Assembly: GCA_021846045.1 (NCBI GenBank)
Contig: JAJZCM010000007.1
Location: forward strand, 1-45,901
Origin: a bacterium
GTDB taxonomy: Bacteria > Elusimicrobiota > Elusimicrobia > UBA1565 > UBA9628
DNA: 45,901 nucleotides
Direction: 5' to 3'
The notes under the pieces were generated by a model, which worked only from the letters and a program-made list of their open reading frames with translations, made no database searches and was not told the DNA's origin. Shown piece after piece: positions 2,506-15,577 of this stretch. The stretch's first letter is position 1; each line of letters starts with the position of its first letter. The position numbers were made by a program, and so were the translations under genes.

Positions 2506-4017
2506 TTAATTCGCGGTCAGAGTGTCGGCTGCGCAGAGAGCCTCAAACAGCTTCCCGGGCGTTTTCGCGGCCAAAAGGGTTTTTCGGAGGCCTTCATTAA
2601 AGGCGAACGTCGCCAGCCGGTTTAGAATTCTCAATTGAAAGACCGGAATCGAGGCCGGCGTCAGAATTAGAAAAGCCAGACGGACCGGGACATTGTCCGG
2701 AGATGGAAACGCAACCGGTTTTGCAAATCGGGCGACGGCGATCATCGGGTTTTTGAGTTCTAAAAGACGAGCATGAGGAAATGCGATGCCCCGCCCCAAG
2801 CCCGAGGAAAACTTAAGTTCCCTTTCCCAGGCGGCGTCGAAAACTTTCCGGGCGTCTAATTCCGGATGGGCGCCGGCTAAAATCTTGGCCAAAGCGGCGA
2901 TGACGGATTTTCGGTCCAAGGCTTCTACTCCAACCGCCACCGCAGGCAAGGACAAAGAATCCGTCAGAGACCAGACCGCTCCCCGGTCGAACTCGTCTTT
3001 GACTTCTCCGATTAATTCTTCGACGATGTCTTCCAGAGTGATGAGACCGCTGATGAAGCCTTTGTCGTTTTTAACTAGGGCCAAGTGAATGCCTCGATCG
3101 GGAAATATTTTGAGCAATTTGTCCAAGGGTTCCGATTCAGAGACGAAACTTAGGCTTCTTTTTAAAGCGTTGAGGTCCGGAGGGGTGGAGGCTTCGCGCA
3201 GAAAAATATCCTTGATATGAATGATGCCGACGGGGTTATCGAGGTCGCGGTAGCAAAGCGGGTAGCGGGAGTAGCTTCTTTCTTGAATTGTATGGAGGTT
3301 TTCTTGCCAGCTTTTATCGATATAGAGGGCCGCGATTTCTTCTTTCGGCGTCATTGTTTCGGCAACGGTTGTTTGTCCAATGTTGAAGAGATTTTCAATT
3401 AAAAGCAGGCGTTCAATGGGAATAGATCCTTTCTCTTGCGTGGAATAAAGAAGAACCCTCATTTCCTCTTCGCCCACGATGGGATCGTTTTCTCCCGCCG
3501 GCTTAAGCCCCAGTATTTTTAAGGCGCTCATCGAGCAAAAAGACATGAAAGCGATAGGCCAGCGAAAAAGATCAGTGAAGAGTTTAAGCGGGAGCGCTCC
3601 CCAAAGGGCTATCGGTTCCGATCTTTGAAGCGCAATTCCTCGCGGCAAGAGTTCGCCGAATAAAACGTGAAGCCAGGTCAAAAAAGCCAAGGCTAAGGCC
3701 AGCGAAATCGCCGTCAGGGCCTCGGGGCCCAAAGGAATCCGCGGATACTCCTTGAGATGGCGGGCAATCAAAGCGGCTAAATTCGGTTGAGCGATCCACC
3801 CCAAGGCGATGGCAATCAAGGTCATCCCAAGCTGGATAGCCGCGAGATAGTGATCGAGTTTTTTTTGCATTTCGATGACGCGCAACGCTCTTGAGTTTCC
3901 GCGTCTCGATAAAACTTCCAGTAAGGAGGGCCTGACCCGCACCAATGCGTATTCCATGAGCACAAAGAGGGCGTTGAGACCGATAAGAAGGGCGGCGATT
4001 AAGAGGGCGTGGGGCAT
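2506..4017 (-). CDS. CNNM (DUF21)/CBS-pair hemolysin-C-like membrane protein with C-terminal PTS EIIA-like domain
   Basis: Hydrophobic N-terminus MPHALLIAALLIGLNALFVLMEYALVRVR; CBS region ETMTPKEEIAAL...GIIHIKDIF...GLITLEDIVEELIGEVKDEFD; C-terminal SGLGRGIAFPHARLLELKNPMIAVARF (EIIA-Ntr-like). ORF track begins at 4137, but ATG at 4017 is preferred because the extension lies in a repeat element. Confidence 0.85.
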   Translation of the reverse strand: MPHALLIAALLIGLNALFVLMEYALVRVRPSLLEVLSRRGNSRALRVIEMQKKLDHYLAAIQLGMTLIAIALGWIAQPNLAALIARHLKEYPRIPLGPEALTAISLALALAFLTWLHVLFGELLPRGIALQRSEPIALWGALPLKLFTDLFRWPIAFMSFCSMSALKILGLKPAGENDPIVGEEEMRVLLYSTQEKGSIPIERLLLIENLFNIGQTTVAETMTPKEEIAALYIDKSWQENLHTIQERSYSRYPLCYRDLDNPVGIIHIKDIFLREASTPPDLNALKRSLSFVSESEPLDKLLKIFPDRGIHLALVKNDKGFISGLITLEDIVEELIGEVKDEFDRGAVWSLTDSLSLPAVAVGVEALDRKSVIAALAKILAGAHPELDARKVFDAAWERELKFSSGLGRGIAFPHARLLELKNPMIAVARFAKPVAFPSPDNVPVRLAFLILTPASIPVFQLRILNRLATFAFNEGLRKTLLAAKTPGKLFEALCAADTLTAN

Positions 4018-4289
4018 TAGGGCTTGGAAAGAAATAAGGTATGCATTTCGCCGGAGGCGCTTTTGGCGCGAGCCGAGAAGTGAGGAGCGAGCATAGCTTG
4101 AGCTATGTGAGCGACGAACGACGAAGGCGCAACCCAAAAGCGCCCCGGCCCTTCGGGGAGGTTCGCTCTTGGACGATTTCTTTGTTGCTCCTCCCTCACA
4201 TAGCTTAAGCTATGCTCACTCGTCGCGCCTCGAAATTGTCTCAACATCGAACCTCCGAAGTGTATACCTTATTTCTTTCCAAGCCCTAA
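4017..4289. repeat. 273-bp imperfect inverted-repeat (MITE-like) element between birA and the CNNM gene
   Basis: Terminal inverted repeat TTAGGGCTTGGAAAGAAATAAGGTAT (26 bp, identical at both ends); internal palindromes CATAGCTTGAGCTATG (4092-4107) and CATAGCTTAAGCTATG (4199-4214). Confidence 0.8.
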
Positions 4290-4838
4290 GTCAGATTTTG
4301 ACATTTCTTTAAGGACTAGAGATAGAACTTCTTTCAGTTCCCAGTCTTTTCCAGTCAAAATTTTAAGGCTGGTGGCGGATTCGAGTTGCGGGCGATTGTT
4401 GATGTTGATTCCGATGCCGATGACCAGCCAAAAAAGGCGAGTCTCATTTCCAGCGGCTTCAATGAGAATTCCGGAAATTTTTTTCCAAGTCTCTCCTTGC
4501 CTTGCGTAAATATCGTTTGGGGGCTTGATTCTCGTCTCGATGCCGGCAATTTTAAAAAGAGCGGCGGAGACAGCCTTGGCCGTTTTAAGACTCAACTCCG
4601 CTAAAACTAGGGGAGAAAAATTCGGTCTTAAGATTAAAGAAAAATAAAGTCCGCCCTCCGGGGATTCCCAGGTTCTCTCCATTCGCCCGCGCCCCGCTTT
4701 TTGCTTTTTGGCCCAAACTAGGGTTTGGTCCTCGGCCCCTTCCTCGGCCAGCATTTTAGCCGTATTTTGGGTTGATTCCATCTCATCTTCATAGACCAAA
4801 TGCGACACTCCGGGGAAAGAAGCCGCTGTTTTTTTCAC
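4269..4838 (-). CDS. birA: Biotin--[acetyl-CoA-carboxylase] ligase
   Basis: VYEDEMESTQNTAKMLAEEGAEDQTLVWAKKQKAGRGRMERTWESPEGGLYFSLILRP, typical BirA catalytic core. Confidence 0.92.
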   Translation of the reverse strand: MKKTAASFPGVSHLVYEDEMESTQNTAKMLAEEGAEDQTLVWAKKQKAGRGRMERTWESPEGGLYFSLILRPNFSPLVLAELSLKTAKAVSAALFKIAGIETRIKPPNDIYARQGETWKKISGILIEAAGNETRLFWLVIGIGININNRPQLESATSLKILTGKDWELKEVLSLVLKEMSKSDLGLGKK

Positions 4839-5896
4839 TCAACCTCCAAACTTATATCCAAGGCCGGCCGCGACTCCTGTGTCAATTCCAATCGGTATTG
4901 GGCAACCGTGCGCCGGGAAATCTCGTGAGAAAACAGGTCCCGAATTATTCGCGCCAATTCCCGATCCGGGAGGCGAGATCGCGAGGCCATCAAACCGCAG
5001 AGTTCGTTTTTTAGGACGGCTTTCCGGTTTATAAAAAATAATTTTAGAGGCGCCGTAAGGCCCCACGGCAATTGGACGGCCTTGTTTGATATCAGGCGAT
5101 TGAGAAGGCCGGGGTTAATATCCAGACGATCAGCCAGGGTTTTCTGCGTCAGGATGTGAAGACGATTCCGGTCGCCTGAGACCAGAAATTCAGCTTGTTC
5201 CGCAATCAGGGCTTCGAGAACGCGGTAAAGCGTGGATTTTCTCGTTTCCAATATTTCCAGTTGACGAAGCATTCTCTCCAGCCGCGTAGATTCTCCCGGC
5301 GGCAGGGATTTTTCCAGCGCTGAGCGTTTGTTCGCGTCTATTTGATAGCGCCCTTTCCATATCTCGCGATTAAAAAAAGCGAGCGCCGGCCTTCCCCCCG
5401 CAATCTCGATTCTGGCGACGGTGGAGAAAACGGTTCGCGGCTCGGAGTTATCCGATGGAGACTCAAATTCCGATTGAATGTAGAGGCGATTGACCAATTC
5501 CTTGAGGCGAACGGCTTCATCAAGAGTGATTCCGCAAGCCAGAGACGTCTCCGCGACGGAGAAATTTTCATCGCCAAGGAAATAGCGCTCAAAATGTTCT
5601 TGCCCAATTTTTTGAATAACGGGGATCATTTCTCCCTTTCCATCCAGAATTTCGGGCAGGCCGTCCGAGGAGCGCGGGCTTGGCCCCTCGATTTTCCCCG
5701 TCCGAAACGCCGCGCCGGCATAGGGGATGATTTGGATAATCCCCTCGGTTAGGAGTTTTTGAAAAAGAGGGGCAGACTCTATCTTTTTAATCTCGGATTC
5801 AAATTCCGTTTCCGACGCTTTCAGGAGACGGGCTAATTTAATCGCCCCCAAAGTTCTCATCCGTGGCGAGGCTCTCATCTGCAGGCCTAAGCTCAT
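4835..5896 (-). CDS. Divergent, short RNA polymerase sigma-54 factor (RpoN-like)
   Basis: N-terminal MSLGLQMRASPRMRTLGAIKLARLLKASETEFESEI resembles RpoN region I; C-terminal LTQKTLADRLDINPGLLNRLISNKAVQLPWG...KLFF and ISRRTVAQYRLEL resemble the sigma-54 HTH and RpoN box; ATGA overlap with the upstream kinase gene (start at 5896 rather than 5914). Confidence 0.75.
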   Translation of the reverse strand: MSLGLQMRASPRMRTLGAIKLARLLKASETEFESEIKKIESAPLFQKLLTEGIIQIIPYAGAAFRTGKIEGPSPRSSDGLPEILDGKGEMIPVIQKIGQEHFERYFLGDENFSVAETSLACGITLDEAVRLKELVNRLYIQSEFESPSDNSEPRTVFSTVARIEIAGGRPALAFFNREIWKGRYQIDANKRSALEKSLPPGESTRLERMLRQLEILETRKSTLYRVLEALIAEQAEFLVSGDRNRLHILTQKTLADRLDINPGLLNRLISNKAVQLPWGLTAPLKLFFINRKAVLKNELCGLMASRSRLPDRELARIIRDLFSHEISRRTVAQYRLELTQESRPALDISLEVE

Positions 5897-7983
5897 GCGG
5901 GAATCTCCTCCCAAGGCGGACTTTTACCAACCGCCTTTTTGATCCAATGGGGCAGGACCAGGGTTTCCGGCTCGTGCCCGGTGGAAAGATAGATTTCTTT
6001 AAAGCCTAGATCGTAAATCTTTTGGGCCGCCTCCTCTCCCTTGACCCCGTTTCCAAGCTCGCGGTCGATATAGACCGGCGTTTGGGGTTCAAATTTTGAT
6101 GACTCCCCTAGAAAATCGGCGACCCCTAAGAAAACCTCCGCCTTCTTCCCCAGCCTTTTGGCCGATAGGCTCCAGGTTTTCCGCGTTAAAGGGTCGTCGT
6201 CAATTAAAATCGCGTCGGGCCTTTCTAAATTTCCGCCCACCTCCAACGGGACAAAGGCCGTGAGGTTCTTGGGTATCATCCGCGTTCCGATTTTAAGACA
6301 ACGCTTGAGAATTTCCGGCTCCTCGTAGCGGCTGGTGACCAAAATAGTTCTTGGGCCTATCCCCAAATCCTCGGCCAGGTCCAAACCTGTTTCCTTATGT
6401 CCCAGCAATTCATAGTCCGAGAGGTGCATCGCGGAAGAGGACTCTCTTGGATGATCCTTAAACCAGTCGCGAAAATCCTTTGGGTTGGAAAAGTGAAAGG
6501 TCTCAATGCCGCGCTCTTGGATCTTTAAGGAGTTAAAACGTCCCTTCCAGACCTGATGGATGCTCGCGTCGTCATCTAAAATGACGATGGGCCGGTGGGC
6601 ATTTAGGATGAGCCGGGAGACAAACCAATCGGGGGAAGGGGCTCTGGGCAATTTGACCAAGGCTGTCGTCCCTTTCCCAAGTTCAGATTTAATTTCAAGG
6701 TCTCCGCCACAAGACTCAAGCGCGGTCTTGGCGTGGTAAATTCCCAAACCCGAGCCGCCCGCCTTGCCGAAACTTTCCCCCTTTTGGCCTATCTTGGCCA
6801 GTATCTCCGGAGAAATGCCTGGGCCATCGTCCTTGACCGCGATAAAAATCCGCTCGCCCTCCGAGTTAAGCGTGATGAGGACGGAACCGCGATCCTTTAA
6901 GGCCTCAACGGCATTATTGACCAAATTCGAGAGAACGCGCTTAAATTCCGCCGGATTGACCTGGGCAAAAAGGCCATAGGATGAATCATCCAAACGATTT
7001 TCGATGGCGATGTTAAGGCGGGACTGAAATTGCAGGCGCTTCTCGCTAATCAGGGATTCAACCAGGCTTGAGAGAAGGCAGGGCGTTTGGTCATGGGACG
7101 CGCTTAGGTCTAGGCCCCCCTCTTTTGTCTCGGTTTGAGCCGGAGCTTTTCGGTATTTCACGAGCAAGTTATTGGCGATGTCATGGATGCGCCCGACCGC
7201 GTTGCGAATCAGAATGCGCTTTTCCTCCGGCAATTGCGCCAAGTCCTTTAAGATTGAGTCCAAAGCCGAAAGCGGCGAGCGGATGTCGTGCGCGACCTGG
7301 AGAGAGATTCCTCCTATGACGGATAACTTCGTGGAATCTTCAATTTTTTTTCGGGCAATTACAAGTTCCTTTTCTACCAAATAGAGCCTCTGCTCCTTTT
7401 CTTGAAGCAATTGTTGTTGCAGGCGAATATTTTCTTCGAACATTGTATATTTCGTAATAGACAGCCTTAAAATGACTGCGGATAGCATGGAAATGGCGAT
7501 GCTAAAAGAAAATGCGTCGACAAAATGTCCTATGGAAGAGAAAAAAGTGGGGCTTTTTGTAAACAAGGGACCAATTTGGGCGATTAGAGCGACTGGGAGA
7601 AACCATTTTATCCAGGTGGTAAAATTCCCCTTATAGCTTAGCGAACTGAGCAAGAACATTAAGCTAGTGTAGGAATAGAAGTCATTCTGATGGGACGGCT
7701 CTAACGCTCCATGAGTCGCTTGCACGCACATGGCGAAAAGATAGTAGCATGATTCAAAACCCTCTATGGTTCTTTTGGTCGCGAGCACGTATATGAAAGC
7801 TGGAATTGGAATAAAAAAGAGAAGCAAGCGGGACCAGAAGAGGTATTCGAACCACGACCAGTTCACGTACTCCTTTGCGCTAAACAGAAAGGGTATCCAA
7901 AACAGAGACATCAGGCATAAAATGATTGCCTGTGCGTAGGGCGAGCTCTTACGGTATGTCGCTGGACTTAAATTGAAATCCAT
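5893..7983 (-). CDS. Polytopic membrane hybrid histidine kinase with two C-terminal receiver-like domains
   Basis: About six hydrophobic segments, coiled coil, VAHDIRSPLSALDSILKD (HisKA), NLVNNAVEAL / DDGPGISPEILAKIG / GSGLGIYHAKTAL (HATPase), then IVILDDDASIHQVW... and AILIDDDPLTRKTW...VYIDREL receivers. Confidence 0.88.
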   Translation of the reverse strand: MDFNLSPATYRKSSPYAQAIILCLMSLFWIPFLFSAKEYVNWSWFEYLFWSRLLLFFIPIPAFIYVLATKRTIEGFESCYYLFAMCVQATHGALEPSHQNDFYSYTSLMFLLSSLSYKGNFTTWIKWFLPVALIAQIGPLFTKSPTFFSSIGHFVDAFSFSIAISMLSAVILRLSITKYTMFEENIRLQQQLLQEKEQRLYLVEKELVIARKKIEDSTKLSVIGGISLQVAHDIRSPLSALDSILKDLAQLPEEKRILIRNAVGRIHDIANNLLVKYRKAPAQTETKEGGLDLSASHDQTPCLLSSLVESLISEKRLQFQSRLNIAIENRLDDSSYGLFAQVNPAEFKRVLSNLVNNAVEALKDRGSVLITLNSEGERIFIAVKDDGPGISPEILAKIGQKGESFGKAGGSGLGIYHAKTALESCGGDLEIKSELGKGTTALVKLPRAPSPDWFVSRLILNAHRPIVILDDDASIHQVWKGRFNSLKIQERGIETFHFSNPKDFRDWFKDHPRESSSAMHLSDYELLGHKETGLDLAEDLGIGPRTILVTSRYEEPEILKRCLKIGTRMIPKNLTAFVPLEVGGNLERPDAILIDDDPLTRKTWSLSAKRLGKKAEVFLGVADFLGESSKFEPQTPVYIDRELGNGVKGEEAAQKIYDLGFKEIYLSTGHEPETLVLPHWIKKAVGKSPPWEEIPA

Positions 7984-9724: not shown

Positions 9725-9910
9725 TCATTTCACAAACCCCTCAATCTCCCGCGCCAAGGCGCGGACCTGTTCGAGCATGAGGCCTAGAAGTTCTTGGGCC
9801 TCTTTGGATGGGGCGTTTTTGAGTAGGGCCGCCGCGCTTTTAAGACTTGCGCATTTCGAGTTGACGGCGTGGATCAAGGTATCGAGATTGGGAGAGGGCG
9901 AAGGGTTCAT
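9725..9910 (-). CDS. 61-aa stand-alone DHp (HisKA-like) helical protein
   Basis: LDTLIHAVNSKCASLKSAAALLKNAPSKEAQELLGLMLEQVRALAREIEGF resembles a two-helix HisKA hairpin with candidate phospho-His in IHAVNSK; no ATPase domain; ATGA overlap with the response regulator. Confidence 0.6.
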   Translation of the reverse strand: MNPSPSPNLDTLIHAVNSKCASLKSAAALLKNAPSKEAQELLGLMLEQVRALAREIEGFVK

Positions 9911-11259
9911 GGCGCCCGTTTTCTGATGTTCGCGCCCGAACGCTTCATGGAATCATAAAGAACTCTCGTTGAGATTTGAAGGGCCTTGACGGTTTTGTTT
10001 CTCCGGTTTCCGTTTTCAATCAGGCTTCTCTGAACCAAGGAGTCGATGAAGGAGTTGAGGGCCTGGTTAAGGCCGTGTCCCAAGGCAAAGCGGTATTGCG
10101 CGTCGGTCGTGAAATCCCGGGCTTTAGTTTCCCCATGCGCGCTTTTAAGCAAGGGCTGAAGGGCCTCGGGCTCTATGATTCCCTTCGTTCCCGCCGACAG
10201 AATATCGACGACTCTTCTAATCTCCCTGACGTTTCCCGGCCAATCATGTCCGAGAAGGGCTTCCCGGGCGCGCGGGGAAAAGACCAGTCGCCGCTTTTCG
10301 CGGTTAAAGAAAGACAGAAGCGGAAGGATATCATCCTTTCGTTGGGACAGCGGTTTTAGGCGAATCGTCAGGCCATGGACGCGCTGAAAGAAATCAAAAC
10401 GCAGGGCCTTGGACTCGACGAGTTCCTGTACATTCTCCAAGGTCGCGCTGATGATTCTAAAGGATGCCCTCTCGGGCTCATCCGAGCCCAGGGGATAAAA
10501 GACGCGTTCCTCAATGGCCTTAAGAAGCTTGGCCTGCATGGCGGGGCTCATGGATCCGATCTCGTCTAAAAAGAGCGTGCCGCCATCGGCCAAGAGGAGT
10601 TTCCCTTTGCGGTCCTCGTCGGCTCCCGTGAAGGCCCCCTTGCGAAAACCGAAGAGCTCCGCTTCCAGGAGTTCATCGTTGTAGGCCGAGCAGTTAATCG
10701 AGATAAATTCTCCCAAGCGGCCGGAATGGTCGTGGATAAGGCGCGCGAGATCGGTTTTTCCCGTTCCGGAGGGTCCTAATATAAGGATAGGGAGTTCCGA
10801 GGGGGCGTAGTGGAGGGCGTTTTCAATGCTTTTCTGGGTTTCCTTGTCCTCGGTGATAAAGCGGTCTTGGAAAATTCTCTCCCGACTCATCCGGTTTCGG
10901 CTGAGGAACCTGGAAAGGACGGCCTGGACATCGGAGCCTTCGTGGCCCTTGACGTAGAAATCTCGGCAACCGAGGGCGTAGGCCTTTTCCACGACGGGAT
11001 CGGAATCATGTCCGGACATGACGACGGAGTAAATCCCCTTAGAGGCCGCGAGAGGAATTAAATCGAGGCCGGCCAGGGGCTGTGATTTCCCCAGATCGAG
11101 ATCGATAAAGCAGAGATCGTGATTTTTTCCCTTTAGCTTGCTCAGGGCCGTCGCCTTGTCCGGGGCGAAGTCCAATTGATGGCCCTGGAGATGGTTTTCC
11201 ATCACCTTGCGGGCCAGGGGATCGTCATCTACGACCAAGACGGAGAGTTTTTGTTCCAT
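9907..11259 (-). CDS. NtrC-family sigma-54-dependent response regulator (REC-AAA-HTH)
   Basis: REC: VLVVDDDPLARKVM...CFIDLDLG; AAA: LGPSGTGKTDLARLIH, FRKGAFTGADEDRKGKLLLADGGTLFLDEIG (GAFTGA loop), WPGNVREIRRVVD; C-terminal Fis-like HTH NKTVKALQISTRVLYDSMKR. Confidence 0.95.
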   Translation of the reverse strand: MEQKLSVLVVDDDPLARKVMENHLQGHQLDFAPDKATALSKLKGKNHDLCFIDLDLGKSQPLAGLDLIPLAASKGIYSVVMSGHDSDPVVEKAYALGCRDFYVKGHEGSDVQAVLSRFLSRNRMSRERIFQDRFITEDKETQKSIENALHYAPSELPILILGPSGTGKTDLARLIHDHSGRLGEFISINCSAYNDELLEAELFGFRKGAFTGADEDRKGKLLLADGGTLFLDEIGSMSPAMQAKLLKAIEERVFYPLGSDEPERASFRIISATLENVQELVESKALRFDFFQRVHGLTIRLKPLSQRKDDILPLLSFFNREKRRLVFSPRAREALLGHDWPGNVREIRRVVDILSAGTKGIIEPEALQPLLKSAHGETKARDFTTDAQYRFALGHGLNQALNSFIDSLVQRSLIENGNRRNKTVKALQISTRVLYDSMKRSGANIRKRAP

Positions 11260-11375: not shown

Positions 11376-11390
11376 TGGCATAAAAATTGA
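11376..11390 (+). promoter_or_regulatory. Candidate sigma-54 -24/-12 promoter, TGGCAT-N5-TTGA
   Basis: TGGCATAAAAATTGA against consensus TGGCAC-N5-TTGC, exact spacing with two mismatches; 28 bp upstream of the radical SAM ATG. Confidence 0.6.
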
Positions 11391-11417
11391 TCTGTTAAAG
11401 GGCAGAGGCCGGAAAAT

Positions 11418-12845
11418 ATGAGCATAGCGATTAAAGAAAAAGAAAGTTTGCTGGAAGGCGCGAGTCTTGTAGCTCCTTCATCGGCCAACCGCGTCTCCCA
11501 TATTCCCTCCCGCTATAACGTAAAAGTTCAGGATGAATCGGGACAGTGGATCGTCTATAACAGCTTTAGCGGAGCGGTCGGGGCAATACCCAAGGAAAAG
11601 GAAGCCGAGATATTGCCCTTATTAGAGGACGGCGGCCAAGGTAGCCTTAGTGGAGAGGCCAAGACCTTAATTGAGCGCGGATTTTTGATTAAACAAGGAA
11701 CCGACGAACTCCGTAGGGTCGCCCTCATGAAACAGCGTCGCCAAAGCGCCAAGGACCTGCATCTCATTTTAATGCCGACGGAAGAGTGCAATTTCCGCTG
11801 CGTCTATTGTTATGAATCTTTCGCGCGCGGGGCAATGAAGCCAGGGGTTCGGCAAGGCGTCAAAAATCTCGCCGCCCGCCTGGTGCCGAAGTTAGAAGCT
11901 ATGGGCGTCAGCTGGTTTGGAGGCGAGCCGCTTCGCGAGATGGGAATTGTCGAGGAGTTGTCCATGAGCCTGATCAACTCCTGTCGGGAACACGGCGTTT
12001 CTTATTCCGCCAACATGACGACCAACGGGTATTATCTTAACGCCGAGAATCTCCGAAAACTATTGGCTTGCGAAGTGAGAAGCTTTCAGATTACCCTGGA
12101 TGGGTGTCCCGAGCAGCATGACGCGATGCGCGTGCTTAAAGGCGGAGGCGCGACGTTTGATAGAATTTGGGGAAATCTCAAGGTGGCAAGACAGATACAG
12201 GAGCGTTTTAGCATTAAAATCCGCGTCAATTTTAATCAACAGACATTAGAGCAGCTGAGCCCCTTCCTTTCGCTTCTCCATTCGGAGCTAAAAGGAGATG
12301 AGCGCTTCAGCCTCTTTTTCCGCCCGGTCGGAAATTGGGGCGGCGCCAACGATGGGAACTTCCAGGTCTGCGATAAAAAGCCGGGCGAGGAATCCACCTT
12401 TGAGGCTTCGCGTACGGCCATTCGCCAAGGATTGCGCTCGGACATGGTTTATCCCTTTTTGCGCCCGCACGGATCCGTTTGTTACGCGGCCAACCCAAAA
12501 TCATTCGTCATTGGAGCGGATGGAACGCTTTATAAATGTACCGTGGCCTTGGAAAATGAGAATAATAAGGTGGGATGCCTTCTGCCTGATGGAACAATGG
12601 ATTTAAATCAAGATCGCTATGCCCTATGGGTTACTTCAGATGATTCGGATGACCCTGTCTGTCAAAGCTGCTTTTTTAGGCCTCCCTGCCAAGGATCGGC
12701 TTGTCCTCTAGTCCGCATCGAGTCAGGCAAGAGGCCTTGTCCGCCGGAAAAAAAGATGATCAAGAAATCTTTGATTACGACCTGGGAGAATTTTAAGGCT
12801 TTCGGTAAACTCGGAGAGGTCGGGACACGGATAAGTCGGGATTAA
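11418..12845 (+). CDS. Radical SAM/SPASM peptide maturase
   Basis: EECNFRCVYCYE (CxxxCxxC); WFGGEPL; SPASM cysteines C-X13-GX4C, CX2CX5CX4C and a final Cys; N-terminal YNVKVQDESGQWIVYNSFSGAVGAI...LIERGFLI as in rSAM RiPP maturases. Confidence 0.92.
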   Translation: MSIAIKEKESLLEGASLVAPSSANRVSHIPSRYNVKVQDESGQWIVYNSFSGAVGAIPKEKEAEILPLLEDGGQGSLSGEAKTLIERGFLIKQGTDELRRVALMKQRRQSAKDLHLILMPTEECNFRCVYCYESFARGAMKPGVRQGVKNLAARLVPKLEAMGVSWFGGEPLREMGIVEELSMSLINSCREHGVSYSANMTTNGYYLNAENLRKLLACEVRSFQITLDGCPEQHDAMRVLKGGGATFDRIWGNLKVARQIQERFSIKIRVNFNQQTLEQLSPFLSLLHSELKGDERFSLFFRPVGNWGGANDGNFQVCDKKPGEESTFEASRTAIRQGLRSDMVYPFLRPHGSVCYAANPKSFVIGADGTLYKCTVALENENNKVGCLLPDGTMDLNQDRYALWVTSDDSDDPVCQSCFFRPPCQGSACPLVRIESGKRPCPPEKKMIKKSLITTWENFKAFGKLGEVGTRISRD

Positions 12846-12862: not shown

Positions 12863-13711
12863 ATGAAAATGAGACGCAAATTAACAGTAGCCGTCATTAC
12901 CATGACTTTGGGACTTGTATTTGCCGAAGCATGGCCGGGGGAGTGGGGAGGTCTAGGAGATGCTTACGCTCAGGCCCAGACGTTGGTTAAAAAAGCGTCT
13001 GTGTCACAGGGGCGTGTGGATTCGAATTTTTCTGGAGACGAATCTCTTCTGCAATCAATGCTCATCGTCCACGGCGATAATGGGAAACTTATTATTAATG
13101 CGGGGGAACCTAAAAAAATCCGATACCAAGTCTCCTACACTCGAAATTCTGGTGATTGGAATTTTTTGAGGAATATATTTAGCAATAGGAAAGGCACTCT
13201 AGGAAAAGAATTTGGCAATACCGTCAAATTTGACAAGGTCCATGAGATGCTTGAAATCCATACAGCAGGCGGTTGGGATTACCAAGCGGAGCTTTGGGCG
13301 CCTCCGTCCGTGCAACTCAATATAACCAATCACAATGGAACCATACGTGTCATACACCATCAGGGAATTGTAATCATATCAGCCAAAAATGGAATCATCA
13401 AGGTAGATGCATCCGAAGGCCCAATAAAAATCAGGGAAGGTAATGGGCAGGTGATGGCTTCCGGCGGCGTTAAAGGGACGGATATACAAATCCATAATGG
13501 TACGGTCTCTGTTAAAAATAGCGGCCCTAAAAGTTTGATAAAAATAAATAATGGAGAGATTCTTTACTCTCCATGGAATATCCCCCATTCATTACGATGT
13601 ATTGAAGCCCATGTTATGCTGGGCTCTATTGACATGTCTCCTCCGTGGTCCGCTTGTTCCCAGTCCACGGTTGATTTGGAAGTCAACAACGGCAGGATTG
13701 TAGTTCAATAA
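12863..13711 (+). CDS. Secreted beta-strand repeat protein (DUF4097/adhesin-like), hypothetical
   Basis: Signal peptide MKMRRKLTVAVITMTLGLVFAEA...AYAQAQ; periodic beta repeats NHNGTIRVIHHQGIVIISAKNGIIKVDASEGPIKIREGNGQV. Confidence 0.65.
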   Translation: MKMRRKLTVAVITMTLGLVFAEAWPGEWGGLGDAYAQAQTLVKKASVSQGRVDSNFSGDESLLQSMLIVHGDNGKLIINAGEPKKIRYQVSYTRNSGDWNFLRNIFSNRKGTLGKEFGNTVKFDKVHEMLEIHTAGGWDYQAELWAPPSVQLNITNHNGTIRVIHHQGIVIISAKNGIIKVDASEGPIKIREGNGQVMASGGVKGTDIQIHNGTVSVKNSGPKSLIKINNGEILYSPWNIPHSLRCIEAHVMLGSIDMSPPWSACSQSTVDLEVNNGRIVVQ

Positions 13712-13769
13712 AATTCTCCAGAATTTCCTAATGGAGTTGTGGAGAAAATAATAATGGAGGGAAAGGAAA

Positions 13770-13856
13770 ATGGTGTGGATTGCAGAGGCTCAAACGAACC
13801 TGGAAAGCATGCTGACAAATGGCGTTTGTACCGGTAATGGAAAATGCGGTCAATAA
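13770..13856 (+). CDS. Candidate RiPP precursor peptide (28 aa), MVWIAEAQTNLESMLTNGVCTGNGKCGQ
   Basis: Not in ORF track. ATG at 13770, TAA 13854-13856; SD-like GGAGG at 13757-13761 (8-nt spacer); sits between maturase/secreted protein and ABC exporter; two Cys in a Gly/Asn-rich C-terminus (C-X5-C). Confidence 0.65.
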   Translation: MVWIAEAQTNLESMLTNGVCTGNGKCGQ

Positions 13857-13871
13857 CGCTGTAATCATTAA

Positions 13872-13895
13872 GGGCGCCCCTTAAATGGGGCGCCC
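13872..13895. terminator. Strong hairpin GGGCGCCCC-TTAAAT-GGGGCGCCC (terminator/attenuator-like)
   Basis: 9-bp perfect GC-rich stem, 6-nt loop, followed by GCCAATTTT; lies between precursor candidate and exporter gene. Confidence 0.7.
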
Positions 13896-13907: not shown

Positions 13908-14855
13908 ATGACAAATTACCATATAGAAGAGTTGACCTACGCTTATCAAGGCGCCAAGAGCCCGGCAATTAATGGGATTAATCTCTCCATCTCCCAAGGG
14001 GAAATTGTCGCCGTCTTGGGCCCCAACGGCGCGGGAAAAACGACCTTGATCCGTCAAATGTTGGGACTCCTAAAACCAACATCGGGAAAAATCTCGCTTT
14101 TTGGCGAGGATGTAATTAAAAATCCGCGCTACGTCGGCCGATATGTATCGTATCTCTCTCAAGAAGGCCTGGGGCCAGGCTTTGGACATTTGAGGGCTTT
14201 TGAGGCCGCAGCCTTTACCGGGATGCTCCGCGGATTAAGTAAGCAAAAGTCTCAAGAGCAGGCTCAAAATTGGATTGAACGCCTTGGCTTCTCCTCGATA
14301 AAAAATTCTTTAATCAAGAATCTTTCGGGCGGGGAAAAGCGCTTGGTTTCCCTGGCCGCATCTTTTATCGGAGAACGCCCGATTATCGTCATAGATGAGC
14401 CCACTAACGATTTGGACCCGGAAGCCCGAAGGCGGGTTTGGGAGATACTAGGAGAGTTGCGCCAGACTCGCAAGATGACCGTTATCTTGGTGACTCACAA
14501 TATCCTGGAGGCCGATCAGGTTGTGGACAACGTCGCGGTCTTAGAGAAGGGTCGCCTTTTGGCTTATGAAAAAATCCATCTCTTTCGCCGGCGGGTTTCT
14601 GGGTTGCGCATGGAAATTTTCCCCGCCTCCCATGACCCGCGCAGTCTCCCTGAGGAATTGGCGCGCTATGGGGCCGTGGAATATAGCGGCGGGAGCTTGC
14701 GGGTTCTGACTAAAAATGGGAATTCAGAGGTCCTCCTTCGCTTTCTGGAAGAGCAAAGGCAAAAGGGCTTCGTGAGAGAATGGCGCATGAGAACCCCAAA
14801 TCTCGAGGACGCTTATTTTGCGCTCGCCGGAAACGGCGCGAGAGACGACTCATGA
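13908..14855 (+). CDS. ABC transporter ATP-binding protein
   Basis: LGPNGAGKTTLIRQMLG (Walker A), NLSGGEKRLVSLAASFIGERPIIVIDEPTNDLDPEARR (signature and Walker B). Confidence 0.95.
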   Translation: MTNYHIEELTYAYQGAKSPAINGINLSISQGEIVAVLGPNGAGKTTLIRQMLGLLKPTSGKISLFGEDVIKNPRYVGRYVSYLSQEGLGPGFGHLRAFEAAAFTGMLRGLSKQKSQEQAQNWIERLGFSSIKNSLIKNLSGGEKRLVSLAASFIGERPIIVIDEPTNDLDPEARRRVWEILGELRQTRKMTVILVTHNILEADQVVDNVAVLEKGRLLAYEKIHLFRRRVSGLRMEIFPASHDPRSLPEELARYGAVEYSGGSLRVLTKNGNSEVLLRFLEEQRQKGFVREWRMRTPNLEDAYFALAGNGARDDS

Positions 14856-15577
14856 AATTTAAAGTCGTGTTTTTGATGGAACTGGCGAAATTTAGATCGC
14901 AGTGGACTTGGTCAATTCTTTTGTCCTCGCTGTTCCCCTTGAGTTTCCTGTTTTTCCTTAAATCAGCCAGGCCCACCGCGGCCCTCTACGCCGTGTCGGG
15001 AGGACTTATCTTCAGCCTCGTTTTGAACGCCGTCCTCGCGATGAGCCAGGAATTGGCCTACCTTAAGGAAGGGGGCGCCCTGGACTATTACAGGACATTG
15101 TCCGTCAGCGAGATTAATATTCTAGCGGCGATGCTGGCGCGTTCCATCCTTTTTACGCTGCCGTCCTTAATCACAATCGCCGTTTTTAGCTCTTACGCTT
15201 TCGGAATGTTCATTCTTCTCCATCCCTTTTGGTCGCTGATGGTCCTGGGGATGGGCCTCATCAGTTTGTCCGGGCTCGGGACGTGTTTGGGGCTTGGACT
15301 CCCTAATTCAAGAACCGTCAATATCGGCAGTCAGGCGATCTATCTCATCATCGTCTTTTGCTCGCCCGTTTTTGTTTCCCAAGCTGCATTGCTCCCTGGA
15401 TTTAGGCAACTTTCCTATTTATTGCCGACGACCTACCTAGCGGAAGCTTTGAGAACCTCGATGTCTGTCCCCATCCTGACGATGAACAATTTTTATATCC
15501 CGCTTTCCCTTCTCGCTTTATTTTGTCCCGTTTCCATCGCCTTGGCTTACCGCTCAATGAGCCGGATCGGAAAATAA
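14852..15577 (+). CDS. ABC-2 type transporter permease
   Basis: MKFKVVFLMELAKFRSQWTWSILLSSLFPLSFLFFL..., six hydrophobic segments; ATGA overlap with ATPase gene (ORF track start 14780 is an upstream extension). Confidence 0.88.
   Translation: MKFKVVFLMELAKFRSQWTWSILLSSLFPLSFLFFLKSARPTAALYAVSGGLIFSLVLNAVLAMSQELAYLKEGGALDYYRTLSVSEINILAAMLARSILFTLPSLITIAVFSSYAFGMFILLHPFWSLMVLGMGLISLSGLGTCLGLGLPNSRTVNIGSQAIYLIIVFCSPVFVSQAALLPGFRQLSYLLPTTYLAEALRTSMSVPILTMNNFYIPLSLLALFCPVSIALAYRSMSRIGK

What the first reader, a model, noticed from the sequence alone, without database searches (positions are those of the whole stretch)
13770..13856. Hidden 28-aa precursor candidate MVWIAEAQTNLESMLTNGVCTGNGKCGQ
The ORF is below the ORF-track cut-off but has a good SD (GGAGGGAAAGGAAA-ATG), an amphipathic leader-like N-terminus (VWIAEAQTNLESML) and a core-like C-terminus with two Cys spaced by TGNGK. 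It is followed immediately by a strong terminator-like hairpin. Length and composition suit a minimal rSAM substrate.
Basis: partly seen in the sequence, partly recalled or inferred. Interest (0 to 1): 0.88.

Follow-up and report, generated by a model that had tools for sequence, protein, structure and literature searches.

The report
Tiny thioether-peptide precursor in Elusimicrobia
An uncultured Elusimicrobia bacterium carries an easily missed 28-amino-acid gene that very probably encodes the raw material for a small cross-linked peptide, made by the radical-SAM enzyme encoded beside it and exported by the transporter encoded after it; relatives in several phyla show the same tiny-gene arrangement and point to one specific, testable chemical bond.

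Summary
The ORF at 13770-13856 is real. It lies in one operon with a radical-SAM/SPASM maturase (11418-12845) and an ABC-2 exporter (13908-15577). A second Elusimicrobium (60% identical maturase) has a 26-aa ORF in the same slot, MEWAEAENEEQATDTNVKCDTNYVCI. The two ORFs are each other's best match among all small ORFs of both stretches. Both share M-x-W-...-A-E-A and the core T-N-x-x-C-x-x-N-x-x-C. Across the maturase's wider clade (Tumebacillus, Bacillus and relatives) other 21-44-aa ORFs lie near the maturase; 26 of 39 of their cysteines have Asn three residues upstream (0 of 2000 shuffles reach this). Best reading: precursor of a bicyclic NxxC-type ranthipeptide-like RiPP, exported by the ABC pair and driven from a sigma-54-type promoter conserved in both organisms. 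The chemistry is inferred; leader cleavage and function are unknown. The 'terminator' hairpin is strong but has no T-run and is not conserved. No tested library model matches the peptide.

The parts
13770..13856 (+). 28-aa precursor peptide ORF, MVWIAEAQTNLESMLTNGVCTGNGKCGQ
   Evidence: counterpart L010:7392-7472, reciprocal best
13756..13761 (+). Shine-Dalgarno GGAGGG
   Evidence: sequence
13770..13817 (+). leader-like part, residues 1-16 (MVWIAEA...); M-x-W shared with L010 (MEW) and Tumebacillus (MKW)
13818..13829 (+). first NxxC unit, Asn17-Gly-Val-Cys20
13836..13847 (+). second NxxC unit, Asn23-Gly-Lys-Cys26
11418..12845 (+). radical-SAM/SPASM peptide maturase, 475 aa, C124xxxC128xxC131
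11376..11392 (+). sigma-54-type -24/-12 element TGGCATAAAAATTGATC, same position in L010
13908..14855 (+). ABC-2 type exporter ATPase (DrrA-like, no C39 peptidase domain found)
   Evidence: 42% identical, same place in L060
14852..15577 (+). ABC-2 permease
   Evidence: 38.5% identical, same place in L060
12863..13711 (+). secreted 282-aa beta-repeat protein between maturase and peptide; link to the cassette unproven
   Evidence: homologues in two same-genus genomes that lack the maturase
9907..11259 (-). sigma-54-dependent response regulator, divergent from the maturase
   Evidence: 55% identical, syntenic in L060
9725..9910 (-). 61-aa helical protein (HisKA-like by eye only) following the regulator
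   Evidence: 62% identical in L060; beside the same regulator in many Elusimicrobia
4835..5914 (-). divergent sigma-54 (DNA-binding domain recognised), usually beside the regulator pair elsewhere
13872..13895 (+). 9-bp G+C hairpin between peptide and ATPase; no T-run

Best explanation
13770-13856 encodes the precursor of a small exported RiPP. The operon starting at 11418 is transcribed from a sigma-54-type promoter that the divergently encoded response regulator probably activates. The maturase probably binds the N-terminal M-x-W-(I)-A-E-A segment and uses its SAM radical to join each of the two cysteines to the asparagine three residues before it (Asn17-Cys20, Asn23-Cys26), by Cbeta thioethers as in NxxcA. 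This gives two 4-residue rings in tandem. The ABC-2 pair exports the product. Shown by sequence: ORF, synteny, leader and NxxC conservation, maturase fold class and catalytic motif, promoter conservation. Inferred: leader binding, which residues are linked, carbon position, export of this peptide, regulation. Unknown: leader cleavage (no peptidase domain was recognised in the cassette) and biological role.
For: Counterpart peptide in the same slot in L010, reciprocal best (score 28.5; next best 15.5 and 18), shuffle p 0.0028. Cassette synteny: regulator 55%, 61-aa protein 62%, maturase 60%, ATPase 42%, permease 38.5%. Three-member Elusimicrobial maturase clade (100/100), sister with moderate support (91/78) to Bacillus/Tumebacillus maturases whose peptides start MKW/MKL/MKM and end NNCNC-like. 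Asn at -3 of Cys: 26/39 against 8.6 expected, 0/2000 shuffles; 4/4 in the two Elusimicrobial peptides; four NxxC units in L076. Precursor ORFs in the Bacillales clade under purifying selection. Maturase model matches thioether-forming CteB best (5WHY, E 4.8e-19) and by profile (5WGG, 6.4e-30). NxxcA has a Cys23-Asn20 Cbeta thioether (PMC8326336; PMC13361665). Near-identical -24/-12 element in both loci.
Against: Only one close relative with downstream DNA is available; the third (L053) ends inside the maturase. A neighbouring clade of maturases serves Cys-free 28-mers, so thioether formation is not universal to the family. Some relatives (L040, L012/L013) have Cys but not NxxC. Asn is also enriched at -1 and -4, though less. 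I could not compare the maturase with NxxcB itself. The -12 element is TTGAT, not TTGCW. The choice of peptides favoured C-terminal Cys, and the pattern was noticed before it was counted, although the shuffle fixes Cys positions and composition.
Confidence: 0.7

Rival explanations
1. It is a real precursor, but the maturase makes another modification: Calpha thioether (sactionine), epimerisation, C-C crosslink, or the two Cys form a disulfide.
For: Closely related maturases act beside Cys-free 28-mers (...SKSVPGNLK), so the family has chemistry beyond Cys. No profile of characterised function reaches its cut-off.
Against: NxxC is conserved across the window's own clade; the nearest solved structure forms thioethers.
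Confidence: 0.2
2. The substrate of the maturase is the secreted 282-aa protein 12863-13711 and the small ORF is spurious.
For: It lies directly after the maturase (17-nt gap) and has a signal-peptide-like start.
Against: Homologues occur in two same-genus genomes with no close maturase, and it has no detectable homologue in L060, whereas the small ORF has a counterpart there.
Confidence: 0.04
3. The ORF is a chance reading of a spacer; the conserved element is RNA or the overlapping frame.
For: Strong hairpin after the ORF; short ORFs are common.
Against: Chance of such an ORF 0.54% and 0.04% in the two gaps; reciprocal-best peptide; no Rfam match; overlapping frame scores near zero and was not retrieved.
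Confidence: 0.04

Closest known systems
NxxC subfamily (NxxcA/NxxcB, Streptococcus orisratti), a ranthipeptide
   Same: Core Cys with Asn at -3; SPASM radical-SAM maturase next to a short precursor.
   Different: Here two tandem NxxC units in a 26-28-aa precursor, Elusimicrobiota, ABC-2 exporter and sigma-54-type regulation instead of Rgg/SHP; homology to NxxcB untested.
CteA/CteB (SCIFF ranthipeptide system)
   Same: Closest solved fold of the maturase (5WHY/5WGG); thioether chemistry.
   Different: SCIFF precursors have six Cys in about 45 residues; maturase 55 bits against a cut-off of 425 for TIGR03974.
TIGR04463 family radical SAM/SPASM RiPP maturase
   Same: Best NCBIfam match over nearly the whole length (221 bits).
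   Different: Far below the 525-bit cut-off; the annotated member seen here (L041) sits beside a large CefA-type Cys-rich protein.
Uncharacterised Tumebacillus/Bacillus tiny-peptide systems (L007, L008, L009, L047)
   Same: Sister maturases, 21-27-aa peptides, MKW-like start, NxxC core.
   Different: Peptides often in 2-3 tandem copies; the genes next to them were not typed here, and no DrrAB-like pair was identified.

Membership tests
NxxC-type ranthipeptide | radical-SAM core with CxxxCxxC plus SPASM cysteines | tested here: met
NxxC-type ranthipeptide | precursor with N-x-x-C in the core | tested here: met
   two units in the window peptide, two in L010
NxxC-type ranthipeptide | Asn-Cbeta to Cys-S thioether in the product | not testable with these tools
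   needs expression and MS/NMR
NxxC-type ranthipeptide | maturase homologous to NxxcB above other SPASM maturases | not tested
RRE-containing RiPP maturase | N-terminal winged-helix recognition domain | tested here: inconclusive
   model residues 27-109 have strands, then helices, strand, helix, and the whole model matches CteB, which has one; domain not tested apart
TIGR04463 | score above curated cut-off (525 bits) | tested here: not met
   221 bits
Clo7bot maturase TIGR04334 | score above cut-off (600 bits) | tested here: not met
   164 bits
geopeptide maturase TIGR04280 | score above cut-off (400 bits) | tested here: not met
   143 bits
PapB ranthipeptide maturase NF047865 | score above cut-off (340 bits) | tested here: not met
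   90 bits
SCIFF maturase TIGR03974 | score above cut-off (425 bits) and a six-Cys precursor | tested here: not met
   55 bits; two Cys in 28 aa

The most novel reading that the evidence does not exclude
The peptide is a bicyclic, tandem-NxxC beta-thioether signal or antimicrobial whose operon belongs to a dedicated regulon in Elusimicrobiota: a divergent sigma-54, a sigma-54 response regulator, a 61-aa protein and a histidine kinase encoded in a conserved set, acting on promoters with an altered -12 element (TGGCAY-N5-TTGATC).
Probability: 0.25. Interest if true: 0.75.

Novelty: new variant of a known kind. Interest (0 to 1): 0.6.

Why it matters
Precursors of 21-28 aa fall below usual gene-calling cut-offs, so this maturase clade looks substrate-less in annotation. 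Reading the tiny ORF beside each maturase yields candidate substrates for most of the clade and a concrete chemical prediction (Asn to Cys, i to i+3) that can be tested by co-expression of two genes. It would extend NxxC thioether chemistry from streptococci to Elusimicrobiota and other Bacillota, with tandem rings.

Tried and rejected
Pfam and NCBIfam gave nothing for the peptides tested, even at E 10. Rfam: no match. A canonical sigma-54 pattern with TTGC found no site upstream of the maturase; the TTGAT variant was found by comparing the two loci. The third Elusimicrobial maturase (L053) lies at a contig end, so no downstream peptide could be checked. Four other species of the genus have no close maturase, so no close-range dN/dS was possible for the window peptide. 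The hairpin as terminator was rejected (no T-run). The secreted beta protein as substrate was rejected. Paper searches for TIGR04463, geopeptide, Clo7bot and Elusimicrobia RiPPs found nothing.

Full report
Setting. The window lies in a 2.0-Mb, 97% complete genome; the nearest related records are Elusimicrobia MAGs. The ORF sits between a radical-SAM/SPASM maturase plus a secreted repeat protein upstream and an ABC-2 ATPase/permease pair downstream, all on the + strand.

Is the ORF real? A chance ORF with these features is expected in 0.54% of shuffled gaps. The decisive test was comparison. The nearest maturase with downstream DNA (L010, 60% identical) is followed by a 26-aa ORF, MEWAEAENEEQATDTNVKCDTNYVCI, with SD AAGGAG at 7 nt, then the ABC pair. 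The two peptides are reciprocal best matches among 933 and 167 small ORFs, far ahead of the next, with shuffle p = 0.0028. The regulator, the 61-aa protein, the maturase and both ABC genes are syntenic between the two loci.

The wider clade. I gathered about 50 related maturases and looked at small ORFs beside them. The window, L010 and L053 form a 100/100 clade, sister with moderate support to Bacillus V3-13 and Tumebacillus maturases. Peptides there include MKWIVKAERQSKVSSNNNNCNC, MKWIVKAAQERKATGNNNNCNC and MKLVKKAMKRREAVANTNCNC, often in tandem copies. A separate 100/100 clade in Bacillota carries Cys-free 28-mers ending KS(V/I)PG(N/S)(L/I/F)(K/R), with synonymous-biased differences between near pairs (dN 0.11 and dS 2.06 for L079/L080). 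So a tiny ORF near the maturase is the rule in this family, which supports the window ORF independently. Some peptides lie further away or on the other strand, and for a few maturases (for example L049) I found none.

The core motif. Both Elusimicrobial peptides read T-N-x-x-C-x-x-N-x-x-C. In 18 distinct peptides, 26 of 39 Cys have Asn at -3, against 8.6 in shuffles that keep Cys positions and regional composition; 0 of 2000 shuffles reach it. L076 has four NxxC units. I noticed the motif before counting, so the p-value is descriptive, but the motif is carried by many separate lineages. NxxC is the motif on which NxxcB makes a Cys23-Asn20 Cbeta thioether (PMC8326336; PMC13361665). The maturase model (pLDDT 76.9, pTM 0.77) matches CteB best, and a profile search agrees. 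I therefore predict two i to i+3 Asn-Cys thioethers. I hold existence of the precursor at about 0.92, and the NxxC thioether given the precursor at about 0.7-0.75.

Export and maturation. The ATPase has no C39 peptidase domain in the Pfam scan, and I found no peptidase conserved in both loci, so leader removal is open. The 9-bp hairpin after the ORF (z -4.8) might lower exporter expression relative to peptide or protect mRNA; this is inference, and it is absent in L010.

Regulation. TGGCATAAAAATTGATC starts 42 nt upstream of the maturase ATG, and TGGCATAAGAATTGATC occupies the matching site in L010. The relaxed pattern occurs nine times in 54 Elusimicrobia genomes, while the reversed control pattern occurs zero times. 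Several copies lie near loci with the same regulator and 61-aa protein, and those loci commonly carry a divergent sigma-54. In G028 the same element precedes a Pro-rich small ORF at a contig end. This suggests, but does not show, a dedicated sigma-54 regulon.

Novelty. No tested library model matches the peptides, and the maturase is well below the NCBIfam cut-offs of every peptide-maturase model it matches. The mechanism proposed is known in one characterised system, so I file it as a new variant of a known kind, not as a member of NxxC proper, because homology to NxxcB and the product were not tested.

Noticed in passing
window 4835-5914 (-), 5893-7983 (-), 9725-9910 (-), 9907-11259 (-): Conserved Elusimicrobial set: divergent sigma-54, histidine kinase, 61-aa protein and sigma-54 response regulator, recurring in many genomes, with promoter-like TGGCAY-N5-TTGATC sites nearby.
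   Followed up: partly
window 2506-4137 (-): CNNM/CBS membrane protein fused to a PTS EIIA (PtsN-like) domain, near the divergent sigma-54 gene.
   Followed up: no
L079:6419-6505, L081:4820-4906, L087:7580-7666 and others: Cys-free 28-aa peptides (...SKSVPGNLK) beside closely related Bacillota maturases; modification unknown.
   Followed up: partly
L017-L027: Distant Elusimicrobiota maturases (about 30% identity, family f14) mostly have Cys-containing 28-41-aa peptides beside them, e.g. MFTWYQKPMVNMDAVECSSYSGACCLSGACCKDNS.
   Followed up: no
L011:9077-9617: Three tandem identical 49-aa peptides ending SGCSTCGSSSCCGSC in Tumebacillus avium, thiopeptide-precursor-like, 1.7 kb from the maturase's own peptide.
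   Followed up: no
L038 and L039: Deinococcus plasmid maturases next to an LLM-class oxidoreductase or annotated monooxygenase, lantibiotic dehydratase genes (L038) and a small secreted Gly-rich peptide.
   Followed up: no
window 12863-13711; L096:8058-8936; L097:7257-8948: Secreted beta-repeat protein of the genus, found without the maturase in two sister species; in G001 it lies beside nadC, with a second partial nadC copy further on.
   Followed up: partly
L101:5881-6253: Same promoter element, followed by a Pro-rich ORF (MISSREARNLANLVGENGDAAIPGAPPAPPPP...) at a contig end.
   Followed up: no
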